From contig JAGQIK010000706.1 in assembly GCA_020431405.1 (NCBI GenBank), positions 1 to 34,269 on the forward strand: a stretch of DNA of 34,269 nucleotides. The letters run 5' to 3'. A program made the translations under genes and the position numbers. The stretch comes from Myxococcales bacterium. Lineage in GTDB: Bacteria > Myxococcota_A > Polyangia > GCA-2747355. Positions 1,255-7,689 of this stretch are shown piece after piece. Each line of letters starts with the position of its first letter. The stretch's first letter is position 1. Below the pieces are notes generated by a model. It saw only the letters and a program-made list of their open reading frames with translations. It made no database searches and was not told where the DNA came from.

Positions 1255-2586
1255 GTGAGTCACACCGATCCGCTGATCGGCCGCGTGCTGGCCGACACCT
1301 ATCGCGTCGAGCGTCGCATCGGTCGCGGCGGCATGGGCACGGTCTACGAGGTGTCCAACGTGCGCCTCGGCAAGCGCTTCGCGATGAAGGTGCTCAACGT
1401 CGGCGAGGAGGCCGACGAGGCGGCGCTCTCGCGCTTTCGCCGCGAGGCGCGCGTCACCACCGAGATCGGTCATCCGCACATCGTCGAGGTCATCGACTTC
1501 AACGTCGCGCCCGGCGGCGCGCGATACATGGTGATGGAGCTTCTGGTCGGCCACAGCCTCGAACGGCAGCTCGAGCTCGAGCGGCAGCTCGACGTCGGAC
1601 GCGCGGTGTTCATCCTGCGGCAGGTCTGCTCGGCGCTACAGGCGGCGCACGAGCGCATGGTGGTGCACCGCGACCTCAAGCCGGCCAACATCTTTTTGTG
1701 CGAGGGGCAGGCCTTCGCCGACTTCGTCAAGGTGCTCGACTTCGGCATCTCGAAGGTCGTGGGCCGGCAGTCGGTGCAGACGCGACCCGAGGCGCTGGTG
1801 GGAACGCCGCACTACATGGCGCCCGAGCAGGCCGAGGGTGCGTCGGAGCGGCTCGGCACCTGGACCGACGTTTACGCGCTGGGCGCGATCGCGTACGAGG
1901 TGCTCGCCGGGGCGCGGCCTTTCGACGCAGGGTCGCTGCCGACGCTGCTCTATAAGATCGTACACGCCGAGCCAGCACCGCTTCCCGAGCGCGTGCCCGA
2001 GGCGCTGGCGCGCGTGGTGGCGCGTGCGATGCACAAGCAGCCGAGCGAGCGCTTCGCCTCGGCCAAGGAGCTGTCGCGCGCGCTGCTCGAGGCGCTGCCG
2101 GAGCCCGAGCGCGCGGCGCAGTCGCTGCTGCGCGAGCCGCCGACGATCCGACACGCGTCTCCGATCACGGACAGCACCGGCGGGCTCGGTACGGGCGTCG
2201 GCGCGGGCGCGGGGCGCGCGCGGCTGGTGATGTTGGGGCTGGTGGCGCTGGGGTTGGGTGTCGGCGCCGGGGTGTGGGCGGCGCTGCGCGACGGGGGGAG
2301 CGAGCGGCGCGCGGTGGATGCGGGCGTGGTGGCGGATGTCCGGGTGGCGAAGGACGTCGGGGTGAGGACGGATGTTGGGGTGAAGGCGGATGTTGGGGTA
2401 GCGGCGGATGTGGAGGTATCGGGCACGGCGGCGGAGCCGAAGGCGAAGCGGGGCACAGGCACAGGCACGGCGGAGCGGGGCAGGTTGGGTGTTAAGGTGA
2501 AGCGCATCAAGAAGAGGCGGCGCAAGAAGCGACGGAAGCGCGACCAGGACATGCCGACCAATCCGCATTCGGGGACACGCAAGTGA
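1255..2586 (+). CDS. Transmembrane Ser/Thr protein kinase (PknB-like)
   Basis: A 443-residue Hanks-type kinase starting with GTG one base after the upstream stop. The catalytic domain spans about residues 15-285. It has the glycine loop GRGGMG (23-28), the ATP lysine in AMKVL (Lys45), HRDLKPANIF (from 138), DFG (162-164) and APE (189-191). All catalytic residues are present, so it should be active. A single hydrophobic segment at about 323-344 predicts one transmembrane helix with the kinase inside the cell. The outer part has five hexapeptide repeats of the form D-V-x-V-x-x (361-390) and ends in a very basic tail (RIKKRRRKKRRKR). No PASTA domain is present. Translational coupling on both sides suggests it works with the lipoprotein and the TPR protein. 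Its substrates cannot be told from sequence. Confidence 0.92.
   Translation: MSHTDPLIGRVLADTYRVERRIGRGGMGTVYEVSNVRLGKRFAMKVLNVGEEADEAALSRFRREARVTTEIGHPHIVEVIDFNVAPGGARYMVMELLVGHSLERQLELERQLDVGRAVFILRQVCSALQAAHERMVVHRDLKPANIFLCEGQAFADFVKVLDFGISKVVGRQSVQTRPEALVGTPHYMAPEQAEGASERLGTWTDVYALGAIAYEVLAGARPFDAGSLPTLLYKIVHAEPAPLPERVPEALARVVARAMHKQPSERFASAKELSRALLEALPEPERAAQSLLREPPTIRHASPITDSTGGLGTGVGAGAGRARLVMLGLVALGLGVGAGVWAALRDGGSERRAVDAGVVADVRVAKDVGVRTDVGVKADVGVAADVEVSGTAAEPKAKRGTGTGTAERGRLGVKVKRIKKRRRKKRRKRDQDMPTNPHSGTRK
2335..2424 (+). repeat. Five 18-bp tandem repeats in the kinase gene
   Basis: These encode the hexapeptides DVRVAK, DVGVRT, DVGVKA, DVGVAA and DVEVSG just outside the predicted transmembrane helix. 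The DNA is G/T-rich (GATGTTGGGGT units), unlike the rest of the gene, and could change copy number in frame by slippage. Confidence 0.65.
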
Positions 2587-3761
2587 GACGAGCGCTCGCG
2601 CTCTTTTTGTTGCTGTGGCTCGTGACGAGCGCCGCTGTAGTGCGTGCCGATCGCCGTGCGGCGGCGGAGCTCTTCGACCGCGGGCTGAAAGCATATAGCG
2701 CGGGCAAGTTCGCCGAAGCGGTGACGGCGTTCGAGCGCTCCTATCGCGCGCGCGTGCATCCCGCCACGCTGTACGCGACGGCGCAGGCCTACCGGCGCTG
2801 GTACGTGCGCGACGGCAAGCGCGAGCACGCGCAGCGCGCGGCGTCGCTCTACCGGCGCTTTCTCGTCGCCGCGCCGCGCTCGCGCTTTGCCAAGAAGGCG
2901 CGAGGGCATCTGGCGCAGCTGCGCGCGCTGCTCGGCGAGGCGATTCGCGACGTGGTGCCCGCGTCCAACGCGGCGTCAGCGCGCACGCCGAAGAAGAAGC
3001 CGCACGCGGTGGTGAGCTACCGCGGCCCCGCGGGCAGCGTGGTGTCCATCGACGGAAAGCGCGTCGGACCGCCTCCGCACCGCTTCGAGCTATCGCCGGG
3101 CGAGCACCGCATCGAGGTGCGCAGCGCGTCGGGCAAGCGGCTGCACCAGCAGTCGGTGACGCTCGGCGCGGGCAAGGAGCTCGTGCTGGTGGTGCCCGAC
3201 GTGGACAGTGGGCCGAGCATGCCGGTGGGGCCGCACGCTGGCGGCGGCAGTGCTCACGGCGGCAGTGCTCAGGGTAATGGTGACGGCAACGCCGGGCGGG
3301 TGCGCGCGCGCGCGGGCGCTCGGTCCGCGCGCCCGTGGTACGTGGCGCTCGGTGGCGGGGCTTCAGTCGGCTTTGGTGATGCGGTGTCGCAGGTTCGCGT
3401 GCTCGGTGAGATGGGCTACCACATCGGCGGTACGCGTCGCGGCTTCGCGCTGGGGCTCGCCGTGGCGCAGACGTTTGCCAACGGGCGCTACGTCATCCAG
3501 CCCGGCGTGGTGCTGCGCTACGACCTTCAGCTCGCGCGTGCACTGCAGCTCGCGCCTGTGATCACGCCAGCCTTCCTTCACGTGCGCCGTGATGGCGTTG
3601 GCTTTTCGGGCTTCGCTGGCGAGGCGGCGCTCGAGCTGCGCTGGCTCGCAACCGAGTGGCTTTTCGCGGTCGTGCGCAGCGGCGCGACGCTGCTCGTATT
3701 CGCCGACGGCAGCACCGCCTCGCGGCTTGGTCTTGGCGTGGGGCTTGGTACGAGCTTCTGA
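2583..3761 (+). CDS. Exported TPR / PEGA-like protein with C-terminal barrel-like domain
   Basis: A 392-residue protein whose GTG start overlaps the kinase stop (GTGA at 2583-2586), a classic translational coupling. Residues 1-22 are a signal peptide ending VVRA. Residues 24 to about 120 are helical and TPR-like: FDRGLKAYSAGKFAEAVTAF is a good TPR helix pair. Residues 140-205 resemble a PEGA domain: GSVVSIDGKRVGPPPHRFEL followed by SPGEHRIEVR. A Gly/Ser/His/Asn-rich linker follows. The last 150 residues alternate polar and apolar residues and end in LGVGLGTSF, as expected of a small outer-membrane beta-barrel. Myxococcal kinases are often encoded beside TPR/PEGA proteins. A likely role is an envelope partner of the upstream kinase; this is inference. 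Confidence 0.75.
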   Translation: MRRALALFLLLWLVTSAAVVRADRRAAAELFDRGLKAYSAGKFAEAVTAFERSYRARVHPATLYATAQAYRRWYVRDGKREHAQRAASLYRRFLVAAPRSRFAKKARGHLAQLRALLGEAIRDVVPASNAASARTPKKKPHAVVSYRGPAGSVVSIDGKRVGPPPHRFELSPGEHRIEVRSASGKRLHQQSVTLGAGKELVLVVPDVDSGPSMPVGPHAGGGSAHGGSAQGNGDGNAGRVRARAGARSARPWYVALGGGASVGFGDAVSQVRVLGEMGYHIGGTRRGFALGLAVAQTFANGRYVIQPGVVLRYDLQLARALQLAPVITPAFLHVRRDGVGFSGFAGEAALELRWLATEWLFAVVRSGATLLVFADGSTASRLGLGVGLGTSF

Positions 3762-3905: not shown

Positions 3906-3948
3906 CTCGCTGGACGCCTCGTCGAGCGTCCGCGAGGAGGGTGTGGGA

Positions 3949-5787
3949 ATGGCCGTTGATTGCGTGCTCGTAGGTTTCAACGATCGGACGTCGCTGCGCA
4001 GCGAGTCAGCAGATCGTCTGATGGCAGGCCGCATAACCAGCGGCCTCGATCGCATCTACCGCAAGAACATCGAGCTCAACTGGTTTCACGTCGGCGGCAA
4101 GTGGCGCCGGCCCTTCGAGGCCTTCAGCTGGATCCTCGACCGGCCGCACCAAGGCGCGTCCAACGGCACCCACAAAAAGCAGTGGTGGACGCTTGGCGAG
4201 GAGCCTAACTCCGCTTGCTTCTACTTGGCGTCGCACCTCTACACCAAGTGGAAGCACACCTCGCGCATCGTCAACTTCTTCCCAGCTCAGCTCGACGAGC
4301 TGCGCCGCTTGCTCGTCGAAGAGACGCCCAAGCTGGTCGTCATCAGCACGACGCTCTACACGCACCATCATCCGCTCGTCGAGGTGGTGCAGTTCATCCG
4401 GGCCCACAACCCGGATGTCAAGATCGCCATCGGCGGTTGGTATGTCACGCAGATGGTGAGCGTCGTCGAGCAGCCGCGGCTGAGCGAGGTCCTGTCGTTG
4501 CTCGGCGGCGACTTCTACATCGACGACTACCAGGGCGAGACGGCGCTCGGCCATCTGCTCGAGGCGATCAAGCGCGGCAACGGCGCGAGCGGGATCTCGA
4601 ACGTGCTCTATCGCGCCGGCGATCAGTTCGTCTGCGACAAGCGCGAGATCGAAGACAATGACATGGACGACTGCGCGCCCGACTGGTCGCTGTTCAGTCG
4701 CGAGGAGCTCGGACCGACCGTCCGCATGCGCACTGCCCGCAGCTGCGCCTACAAGTGCTCGTTCTGCAACTTCCCGATCATCGGCAATCTCGCGCTGTCG
4801 CGCGTAGAGACCGTCGAGCGCGAGATGAAGCAGCTCGCGGCGCTCGGTGTGAAGCAGATCGTCTTCGCTGACGACACCTTCAACATCCCTCTGCGCCGCT
4901 TCGAAGACATGCTGCGCATGATGATCGACAACGACTTCGGCTTCGAGTGGGAGGCCTTCATCCGCTGCGGCAACATTCGCCGCGAAGACACGTTCGACCT
5001 GATGAAGGACAGCGGCTGTGCCGGCGCCTTCCTCGGCTTCGAGTCGGGCGACCCCTCGATCCTCAAGAACATGAACAAGGCGGTGCCGGTCGAGCGGCTC
5101 GCTTCGGGCGCGCTCGAGCTGCACAAGCGCGACATCCCGTTCCTCGCGTCGATGATCGCCGGCTTCCCCGGCGAGACGTGGGAGACGATCGACACGACGG
5201 TGGCGTTCCTCAACCACATCGAGCCGACCTACTTCAAGATCTCACCGTTCTACTACGACCATCGCGCGCCGGTAGCGCAGCGTGCGTCCGAGTTCGACCT
5301 GCGCGGCGCCGGCTTCAACTGGAGCCACGCCACGTTCGACAGCCAGATGAGCGTCGACGCCGTCGACTACGTCCGTTCGAACGTGCGTAACTCGTGCTGG
5401 ATGCCGTCGGACTACTACACGTTCTTCGCCTTGCCGTATCTGCGCGGCAAGGGGCTGAGCAACGGTCAGATCCTGCGGCTAACGCAAGCGCTCGGAACCT
5501 GCGTCGACGTCAACCGGCTCGCCAACTCGACGTCGCTCGAGGCACGCTCGGCGCGCGCGAAGGCGCTGTCGACGCTCGAAGCGACCGTGCGCGCGCTGCC
5601 GTGGGAGGACGCACGCTTCGCGTTGGTCGAGGACAGCCCGCTCGACGCACCGTCGTTCAGAGCGGTCGTCGATCGCGTCAACGCCGACATCAGCGGCGTG
5701 CTCGCGCGCGCCACCGAGAACGTACGCACGCCCGAGATGCCGGTGGAGAATCTCGGCGTCGCCAGCTGGGCGCCGATGCCGACCTGA
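3949..5787 (+). CDS. PhpK-like radical SAM enzyme (B12-type methyltransferase candidate)
   Basis: A 612-residue protein. ATG 3949 is chosen over GTG 3943 because GAGGAGG (3934-3940) lies eight bases upstream of it. The N-terminal part (about 1-215) resembles a cobalamin-binding Rossmann region: VDCVLVGFND at the start, LVVISTTLY near 130 and VKIAIGGWYV near 160. It has no DxHxxG motif. The radical SAM cluster motif is C266-x3-C270-x2-C273 (SCAYKCSFCNFP). Downstream blocks VFADDTFNIP, FLGFESGDPSILKNMNKA and GFPGETWETI follow the pattern I recall for the PhpK family, named for the radical SAM P-methyltransferase of phosphinothricin-type biosynthesis. Many family members sit in unrelated clusters, so the substrate is open. 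No phosphonate genes are in the window. The next gene is an Fe/2-oxoglutarate-type oxygenase, a likely pathway partner. Confidence 0.82.
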   Translation: MAVDCVLVGFNDRTSLRSESADRLMAGRITSGLDRIYRKNIELNWFHVGGKWRRPFEAFSWILDRPHQGASNGTHKKQWWTLGEEPNSACFYLASHLYTKWKHTSRIVNFFPAQLDELRRLLVEETPKLVVISTTLYTHHHPLVEVVQFIRAHNPDVKIAIGGWYVTQMVSVVEQPRLSEVLSLLGGDFYIDDYQGETALGHLLEAIKRGNGASGISNVLYRAGDQFVCDKREIEDNDMDDCAPDWSLFSREELGPTVRMRTARSCAYKCSFCNFPIIGNLALSRVETVEREMKQLAALGVKQIVFADDTFNIPLRRFEDMLRMMIDNDFGFEWEAFIRCGNIRREDTFDLMKDSGCAGAFLGFESGDPSILKNMNKAVPVERLASGALELHKRDIPFLASMIAGFPGETWETIDTTVAFLNHIEPTYFKISPFYYDHRAPVAQRASEFDLRGAGFNWSHATFDSQMSVDAVDYVRSNVRNSCWMPSDYYTFFALPYLRGKGLSNGQILRLTQALGTCVDVNRLANSTSLEARSARAKALSTLEATVRALPWEDARFALVEDSPLDAPSFRAVVDRVNADISGVLARATENVRTPEMPVENLGVASWAPMPT

Positions 5788-5790
5788 TGC

Positions 5791-5859
5791 GCCACGTGCC
5801 ACGTGCAACATCGTCAACGTGACGATTAGCAGATTGATTGGACCGCTGACGCGGTCCAA
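5791..5859. repeat. Tandem repeat and two hairpins in the radical SAM / dioxygenase gap
   Basis: The 90-base gap holds a tandem GCCACGT GCCACGT (5791-5804). Next is the perfect inverted repeat ATCGTCA-acg-TGACGAT (5810-5826), then the perfect 9-bp inverted repeat TTGGACCGC-tgac-GCGGTCCAA (5838-5859). Neither hairpin is followed by a T tract, so they look more like regulator sites or mRNA-stability or attenuation elements than intrinsic terminators. Confidence 0.6.
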
Positions 5860-5877
5860 CTGTCGAGGTTAACGACC

Positions 5878-6762
5878 ATGAACGAGCGGATCGCCAAGTA
5901 CGACCCTTCAGACGAGGCCATTTCGACCTATCAGGAAGTGGGCGTGGTGTACCTGCCCGACATCCTCGACGCCGAGTGGATCAAGCATCTCGCCGCGAGC
6001 ATCGACGAGGTCGTCGAGCGAGACGACCTCATCGTCCGCAACTTCTCCAAGATCGCCGAGACGCTGGTCGATCCCGAGAAGCCGGCCGAGCCGGGCTCGC
6101 TGCAAGAGCGGCTCGCCGACAAGATCGGCAAGGCCACCGGGCGTTTTCTGATGGGCTGCGGCAACTGGTCGAAGACGCAGGACCTGCGCGCGTTGATCAC
6201 ACACACGTGCCTGGGGCGCATCGCCGGCGCGTTGATGCAGTCCTCCGAGGTCCGCGTGCACAACGACCTGATGTTCTGCAAGGAGCCCGGCTCGCTGCAC
6301 CGCACGGCGTGGCACCAGGACATGTCCTACTGGAACATCCAAGGCGACCAGTGCCTGACGCTGTGGATCCCCGTCGACGTGGTCGACGAGGGCAACGGCA
6401 TGATGGGCTACATCCGCGGCTCGCATCGCTGGCAGGACGAGTTCAAGAGCAACCGCATCGTCAGCGAGATCACGCACGAGGCGGCGGCCGGCAAGACCCT
6501 CACCGTCGAAGGCCACGAGGACGAGTTCGATATCGTCTACATCCCGGCCAAGCCAGGTGACATCATCGCTCACCACGTGCGCACGATTCACGGTGCCACG
6601 GGCAACACCGTCAGCCGCACGCGGCGCGCCGCGGCGTTCAGCTACGTCGGCGACGACATCCGCTACTTCCGCCGCTCGTTCACGCCCGAGTCGTTCGAAG
6701 GGACCAACGGCGACCTGCTGCGCGAGCCGCGGCACCCGGTGGTCTGGAGCGCCGCGGGGTGA
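5878..6762 (+). CDS. Phytanoyl-CoA dioxygenase (PhyH) family oxygenase
   Basis: A 294-residue non-haem Fe(II)/2-oxoglutarate-type oxygenase of normal family length. The iron ligands are visible as H146-x-D148 in TAWHQDMSYW and H238 in VRTIHGATGN. Arg247 or Arg249 about ten residues later is the expected 2-oxoglutarate carboxylate anchor. LWIPVDVVDEGNG and MGYIRGSHRW are typical of the double-stranded beta-helix core. The start is ATG 5878 with GAGG nine bases upstream. PhyH enzymes hydroxylate or otherwise oxidise small molecules, including natural products, lipids and phosphonates. Following the PhpK-like radical SAM gene, it may modify the same compound. The gene ends three bases from the convergent FHA gene. 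The substrate is unknown. Confidence 0.88.
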   Translation: MNERIAKYDPSDEAISTYQEVGVVYLPDILDAEWIKHLAASIDEVVERDDLIVRNFSKIAETLVDPEKPAEPGSLQERLADKIGKATGRFLMGCGNWSKTQDLRALITHTCLGRIAGALMQSSEVRVHNDLMFCKEPGSLHRTAWHQDMSYWNIQGDQCLTLWIPVDVVDEGNGMMGYIRGSHRWQDEFKSNRIVSEITHEAAAGKTLTVEGHEDEFDIVYIPAKPGDIIAHHVRTIHGATGNTVSRTRRAAAFSYVGDDIRYFRRSFTPESFEGTNGDLLREPRHPVVWSAAG

Positions 6763-6765
6763 TCG

Positions 6766-7689
<924 letters not shown>

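What the first reader, a model, noticed from the sequence alone, without database searches (positions are those of the whole stretch)
3949..6762. PhpK-like radical SAM enzyme paired with a PhyH oxygenase, outside any recognisable biosynthetic cluster
Seen: an intact CxxxCxxC radical SAM protein with PhpK-family blocks, followed 90 bases later by an oxygenase with intact HxD...H. Known: PhpK methylates phosphorus in phosphinothricin-type pathways, and PhyH-family enzymes oxidise phosphonates and other small molecules. Inferred: the two act in sequence on one metabolite. No PEP mutase, NRPS or PKS gene lies in the window, so this may be a stand-alone two-enzyme system with an unknown substrate.
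Basis: partly seen in the sequence, partly recalled or inferred. Interest (0 to 1): 0.65.

Follow-up and report, generated by a model that had tools for sequence, protein, structure and literature searches.

The report
Divergent PhpK-like methylase beside PhyH oxygenase
A myxobacterium-like genome carries two intact neighbouring enzyme genes, a vitamin-B12 radical methylating enzyme distantly related to the one that methylates phosphorus in the herbicide phosphinothricin and an iron oxygenase, but the pair was not found side by side anywhere else searched and probably tailors some other small molecule.

Summary
In detail: an intact radical SAM gene (3949-5787, C266/C270/C273) is followed 90 bp later by an intact PhyH oxygenase gene (5878-6762). 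The radical SAM protein's best model is TIGR04479 (PhpK), but it scores 492 bits against a cut-off of 600. Compared with the PhpK of a phosphinothricin-type cluster recovered here, it is 39% identical, shares a one-residue insertion found in only 5 of 85 relatives, and groups with it and three Micromonosporaceae proteins (SH-aLRT 91). So it belongs to the PhpK subclade, on a long branch. The rest of the reading weakens. The genome does hold a PEP-mutase operon on another contig, apparently for phosphonolipids. It lacks the CPEP mutase and PhpG that make PhpK's substrate. Most PhpK-family genes found (49 of 65 loci) sit beside NRPS genes, and 5 of 48 carrier genomes have a PEP mutase, so 'P-methyltransferase' is a poor guide to substrate. 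The gene pair was not adjacent in any of 76 relative loci. Best reading: a B12 radical SAM methyltransferase, probably methylating carbon, with a 2-oxoglutarate oxygenase, of unknown substrate. A divergent member of a known kind; modest interest.

The parts
3931..3941 (+). GAGGAGG ribosome-binding-like stretch upstream of the radical SAM start
   Evidence: sequence; functional role inferred
3949..5787 (+). Cobalamin-dependent radical SAM methyltransferase-like gene, 612 aa; N-terminal Rossmann-type (B12-binding-like) region, radical SAM core with C266/C270/C273, extra C-terminal helices
   Evidence: AlphaFold2 model mean pLDDT 87.8; closest folds TsrM Z 21.3, MgmA 20.9, CysS 20.6, OxsB 20.3
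5838..5859 (+). Perfect 9-bp inverted repeat with 4-nt loop (TTGGACCGC TGAC GCGGTCCAA) between the two genes; no U-run follows, so possible attenuator, operator or processing hairpin
   Evidence: (only copy in the window; expected 0.02)
5878..6762 (+). PhyH-family Fe(II)/2-oxoglutarate oxygenase-like gene, 294 aa; likely iron ligands H146, D148, H238 and 2-oxoglutarate arginine R249 by analogy with phytanoyl-CoA dioxygenase
   Evidence: closest solved structure MysH (98.5 bits); ligand assignment of H238 and R249 from known PhyH spacing (own knowledge)
6766..7689 (-). Convergent FHA-domain protein; bounds the pair, not part of it
1255..3761 (+). Upstream Ser/Thr protein kinase (1255-2586) and unrecognised protein (2583-3761); not biosynthetic, bound the pair

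Best explanation
The radical SAM gene encodes a cobalamin-dependent radical SAM methyltransferase of the PhpK subclade. It most likely works as its class does: SAM methylates cob(I)alamin; a second SAM is cleaved at the [4Fe-4S] cluster held by C266/C270/C273; the 5'-deoxyadenosyl radical abstracts a hydrogen from the substrate; and the substrate radical takes the methyl group from methylcobalamin. The atom methylated is more likely an unactivated carbon of a small amino-acid-like or carrier-bound substrate than phosphorus. The PhyH protein is a non-haem Fe(II)/2-oxoglutarate oxygenase that would hydroxylate or demethylate a small molecule, possibly the same one. Shown by sequence and model: both genes intact, family and fold, cluster cysteines, HxD motif, kinship to PhpK. 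Inferred: cobalamin use, reaction order, shared substrate, carbon as target.
For: Family hits and intact motifs. Confident model whose nearest solved folds are B12 radical SAM enzymes, led by TsrM, MgmA, CysS and OxsB. 68 of 76 columns conserved in at least 90% of relatives are kept. PhpK subclade membership: 39% identity to the phosphinothricin-cluster PhpK, shared one-residue insertion in 5 of 85 rows, SH-aLRT 91. 49 of 65 core relatives lie beside NRPS-like genes, including the Micromonospora sister next to C-A-MT, A-T and T-TE proteins and a P450. Only 5 of 48 carrier genomes have a PEP mutase over cut-off. The own genome has no PhpG hit and no CPEP mutase, its two PEP-mutase-fold places scoring 100 and 27 bits on TIGR02319 against a cut-off of 420.
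Against: The Pfam B12-binding hit is below cut-off, 24.6 against 32.1 bits. The protein departs at 8 conserved columns, including P164W and M463F, as many as the most divergent of 72 relatives, so its reaction may have changed. It has no NRPS neighbour in the window, so a carrier-bound substrate is not indicated by its own context. Nothing shows that the two proteins share a substrate.
Confidence: 0.55

Rival explanations
1. True P-methyltransferase: it methylates an H-phosphinate or activated phosphonate made through the PepM operon on contig C291, and the PhyH enzyme hydroxylates the phosphonate carbon, giving a methylphosphinate head group or metabolite.
For: Groups with the phosphinothricin-cluster PhpK. 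The genome has PepM fused to an NTP transferase, phosphonopyruvate decarboxylase, an Sden_1164-family NTP transferase and a CDP-alcohol phosphatidyltransferase. NCBIfam calls the Sden_1168 family, numbered as a near neighbour of Sden_1164, a radical SAM P-methyltransferase.
Against: No CPEP mutase and no PhpG in the genome, so no known route to the P-H substrate. The PepM operon is on another contig, PepM is found in 34 of 289 class genomes including a same-family genome without the radical SAM gene, and PepM is not enriched among carriers (2 of 8 against 32 of 281, Fisher p 0.24). TIGR04479 score below cut-off.
Confidence: 0.1
2. Two unrelated genes that happen to lie next to each other, each with its own substrate; the hairpin between them separates two transcription units.
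For: The pair is not adjacent in any of 76 relative loci, and the two genes do not co-occur in 289 class genomes outside the window at the thresholds used. Perfect 9-bp hairpin in the 90-bp gap.
Against: Same strand, 90-bp gap, both flanked by non-metabolic genes, and both patchily distributed in the class, so joint arrival is plausible. No poly-U tract follows the hairpin. PhyH-type genes do lie in a few NRPS clusters that carry a PhpK relative.
Confidence: 0.3
3. The radical SAM protein has lost methyl transfer and performs another B12 radical SAM reaction (ring contraction, dehydration or other), following its long branch.
For: Terminal branch 1.6-1.9, the longest in the trees; departures at P164, Y384, M463 and A468, which are nearly invariant elsewhere. 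The radical SAM diol dehydratase AprD4 and the cobalamin enzyme OxsB are among the close folds.
Against: All cluster cysteines and most conserved columns are kept. Nearest kin by sequence include a known-pathway methyltransferase.
Confidence: 0.12

Closest known systems
PhpK / BcpD, P-methyltransferase of phosphinothricin-type pathways (TIGR04479); reference here L143:16646-18295(-), in a Streptomyces-genus genome with PhpG, CPEP mutase and PepM
   Same: 39% identity over 436 residues, CX3CX2C, shared one-residue insertion near residue 345, same subclade in trees
   Different: 492 against 729 bits on TIGR04479; no CPEP mutase, PhpG, NRPS or PepM around it; long branch; departs at conserved P164, Y384, M463 and A468
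NRPS-associated TIGR04479 radical SAM proteins, such as those of Micromonospora (L049, L050)
   Same: Best sequence match (41%), same insertion, HRAP motif
   Different: They lie in an NRPS cluster with C-A-MT, A-T and T-TE proteins and a P450; the window gene does not. Their substrate is also unknown
TsrM, CysS, TokK, OxsB (solved cobalamin-dependent radical SAM enzymes)
   Same: Overall fold, Z 17-21 over about 380-430 residues
   Different: 14-19% identity; different subfamilies and substrates
MysH, Fe/2-oxoglutarate dioxygenase of mycosporine-like amino acids (PDB 9c9n)
   Same: PhyH-type oxygenase, 98.5 bits, HxD...H region aligns
   Different: No family-specific model reaches its cut-off; no mycosporine pathway gene was recognised in the window

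Membership tests
TIGR04479 PhpK family radical SAM P-methyltransferase | Curated score cut-off of 600 bits | tested here: not met
   492.5 bits, although the best of all NCBIfam models; reference PhpK scores 728.9
PhpK subclade | Groups with a PhpK from a phosphinothricin-type cluster | tested here: met
   Unique one-residue insertion shared by 5 of 85 rows; SH-aLRT 91, below the 95 mark, and the window branch is long
PhpK P-methyltransferase (function) | Genome makes an H-phosphinate substrate (CPEP mutase, PhpG) | tested here: not met
   No PhpG match; only two PEP-mutase-fold places in the genome, TIGR02319 scores 99.9 and 26.7 against cut-off 420; genome 95.7% complete, so absence is not absolute
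PhpK P-methyltransferase (function) | Methylates phosphorus | not testable with these tools
   needs enzyme assay
Radical SAM superfamily | Pfam PF04055 over cut-off and CX3CX2C | tested here: met
   74.4 against 29.5 bits; C266/C270/C273
Cobalamin-dependent radical SAM methyltransferase | N-terminal B12-binding Rossmann domain | tested here: inconclusive
   Pfam B12-binding 24.6 against 32.1 bits; model matches cobalamin-bound TsrM and OxsB over nearly its whole length; binding itself untested
PhyH (PF05721) Fe(II)/2-oxoglutarate oxygenase | Pfam cut-off and HxD...H facial triad | tested here: met
   90 against 22 bits; H146-x-D148 and H238; third ligand assigned by analogy
MysH | Mycosporine-like amino acid substrate and pathway context | not tested
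   Only sequence similarity was measured; the whole genome was not searched for mycosporine genes

The most novel reading that the evidence does not exclude
A P-methylating enzyme working outside any phosphinothricin cluster: it methylates a phosphonate or phosphinate derived from the genome's PepM operon and the PhyH oxygenase hydroxylates it, giving a methylphosphinate head group or metabolite in a myxobacterium.
Probability: 0.07. Interest if true: 0.75.

Novelty: new member of a known kind. Interest (0 to 1): 0.3.

Why it matters
It shows that the label 'PhpK family P-methyltransferase' reaches far beyond phosphinate pathways. In the sample found here, members were mostly beside NRPS genes and the carrier genomes mostly lacked PEP mutase, so the name should not be used to predict phosphorus chemistry. 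The window protein and three Micromonosporaceae proteins are the nearest kin found to a PhpK in a phosphinothricin-type cluster, so they are useful for asking what changed when a radical SAM methylase moved between carbon and phosphorus.

Tried and rejected
A single-protein scan of genome contigs found no relative; the alignment scan found 77 loci. Rfam found no riboswitch, including cobalamin, in the window. A structure of the PhyH protein without an alignment was useless, mean pLDDT 33.6, and was not used. The Sden_1168 P-methyltransferase model finds only sub-cut-off radical SAM proteins in the genome, best 156 against 575 bits. The second PEP-mutase-fold gene (contig C610 edge) is a partial methylisocitrate-lyase-like fragment, not CPEP mutase. 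The own genome's two condensation-domain proteins (contigs C130, C178) are ligase-carrier-condensation proteins on other contigs. Paper searches gave no study of PhpK relatives outside phosphinothricin.

Full report
Observation. The radical SAM frame runs 3949-5787 and the PhyH frame 5878-6762, same strand, 90 bases apart. Cluster cysteines C266/C270/C273 and the HxD motif H146/D148 are intact. Pfam confirms both families. Upstream lie a protein kinase and an unrecognised protein, and downstream a convergent FHA protein, so the pair is bounded by non-metabolic genes. No NRPS, PKS or PEP mutase is recognised in the window.

What the radical SAM protein is. Its best NCBIfam model is TIGR04479 (PhpK) at 492.5 bits, below the cut-off of 600; the next best model scores 88. 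To get a true yardstick I searched 393 genomes of the genus of a fetched Streptomyces locus for CPEP mutase. One carries it at 672 bits, with PhpG at 682 bits, a PEP mutase, a phosphonoacetaldehyde-dehydrogenase-like gene and a PhpK at 729 bits, which is a phosphinothricin-type cluster. The window protein is 39% identical to that PhpK over 436 residues. In an alignment of 85 relatives, a one-residue insertion near window residue 345 occurs in five only: the window protein, this PhpK and three Micromonosporaceae proteins. A 31-row tree joins the same five with SH-aLRT 91. The window branch is the longest, so I treat the grouping as likely, not settled.

Fold and chemistry. An AlphaFold2 model built with 40 relatives has mean pLDDT 87.8. 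Its nearest solved folds are TsrM (Z 21.3), MgmA, CysS and OxsB, cobalamin-dependent or related radical SAM enzymes. The Pfam B12 domain is below cut-off, so cobalamin use rests on fold and kinship. Of 76 columns conserved in at least 90% of 72 relatives, the window keeps 68; it departs at P164, L293, D345, E347, V360, Y384, M463 and A468. The median relative departs at 2, the maximum is 8, and the reference PhpK departs at 3. The catalytic core looks functional while the substrate side may have diverged.

Context of the family. Of 65 distinct core relative loci, 49 have an NRPS-like gene within the fetched flank; of 11 more distant loci, none does. This rests on a motif rule and some flanks are cut short by contig ends. 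PEP mutase over cut-off is present in 5 of 48 carrier genomes, and in the class carriers do not differ from the rest (2 of 8 against 32 of 281, p 0.24). Yet 34 of those 48 genomes pass the TIGR04479 cut-off. The Micromonospora sister sits beside C-A-MT, A-T and T-TE proteins and a P450, with no PEP mutase in its genome. So the family name does not predict phosphorus chemistry.

The genome's phosphonate genes. Contrary to the stand-alone picture, contig C291 holds PepM fused to an NTP transferase (353 bits, cut-off 320), phosphonopyruvate decarboxylase (362, cut-off 312.5), a second NTP transferase of the Sden_1164 family and a CDP-alcohol phosphatidyltransferase. I read this as a phosphonolipid-type operon (inference). 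PepM occurs in 34 of 289 class genomes, including a same-family genome without the radical SAM gene, so it is independent of the pair. CPEP mutase and PhpG are not found.

The PhyH protein and the pair. Its closest solved structure is MysH at 98.5 bits; no NCBIfam model reaches its cut-off. Homologues in plasmid records are at most about 35% identical. No relative of the radical SAM gene has an adjacent PhyH gene; three loci show a clear PhyH-type gene within about 10 kb, in L058 about 1.5 kb upstream inside an NRPS cluster, and in L084 and L110 about 8-9 kb away. In 289 class genomes the PhyH homologue and the radical SAM homologue do not co-occur outside the window at the thresholds used. 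A perfect 9-bp hairpin lies between the two genes. A shared pathway is therefore a guess from adjacency.

Verdict. A real, intact and divergent PhpK-subclade radical SAM gene next to a PhyH oxygenase gene. Most likely a small tailoring pair or two neighbours of unknown substrate, probably acting on carbon. The phosphorus reading is possible but lacks the genes that would supply the substrate.

Noticed in passing
L046 (own genome contig C291) 8041-13978(-): PepM-NTP transferase fusion, phosphonopyruvate decarboxylase, Sden_1164-family NTP transferase and CDP-alcohol phosphatidyltransferase in a row: a likely phosphonolipid operon.
   Followed up: partly
L141 (own genome contig C178) 5642-11348(+): A ligase-carrier-condensation protein (1088 aa) followed 73 bp later by a 788-aa B12/radical SAM-like protein with only weak similarity to PhpK: a second, different pairing in the same genome.
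   Followed up: partly
L049-L112 (genome contigs relatives): TIGR04479 cut-off is passed by many NRPS-associated proteins whose genomes lack PEP mutase; the product name P-methyltransferase is probably wrong for most of them.
   Followed up: yes
G318 (genome of L080, Candidatus Aminicenantes): Nine TIGR04479 matches in one genome, several in NRPS clusters.
   Followed up: no
L005, L007, L008 (class relatives): PhpK-like proteins with an extra C-terminal region of about 200-300 aa of unknown role.
   Followed up: no
window 5838-5859: Perfect 9-bp inverted repeat with 4-nt loop, unique in the window, between the two genes.
   Followed up: partly
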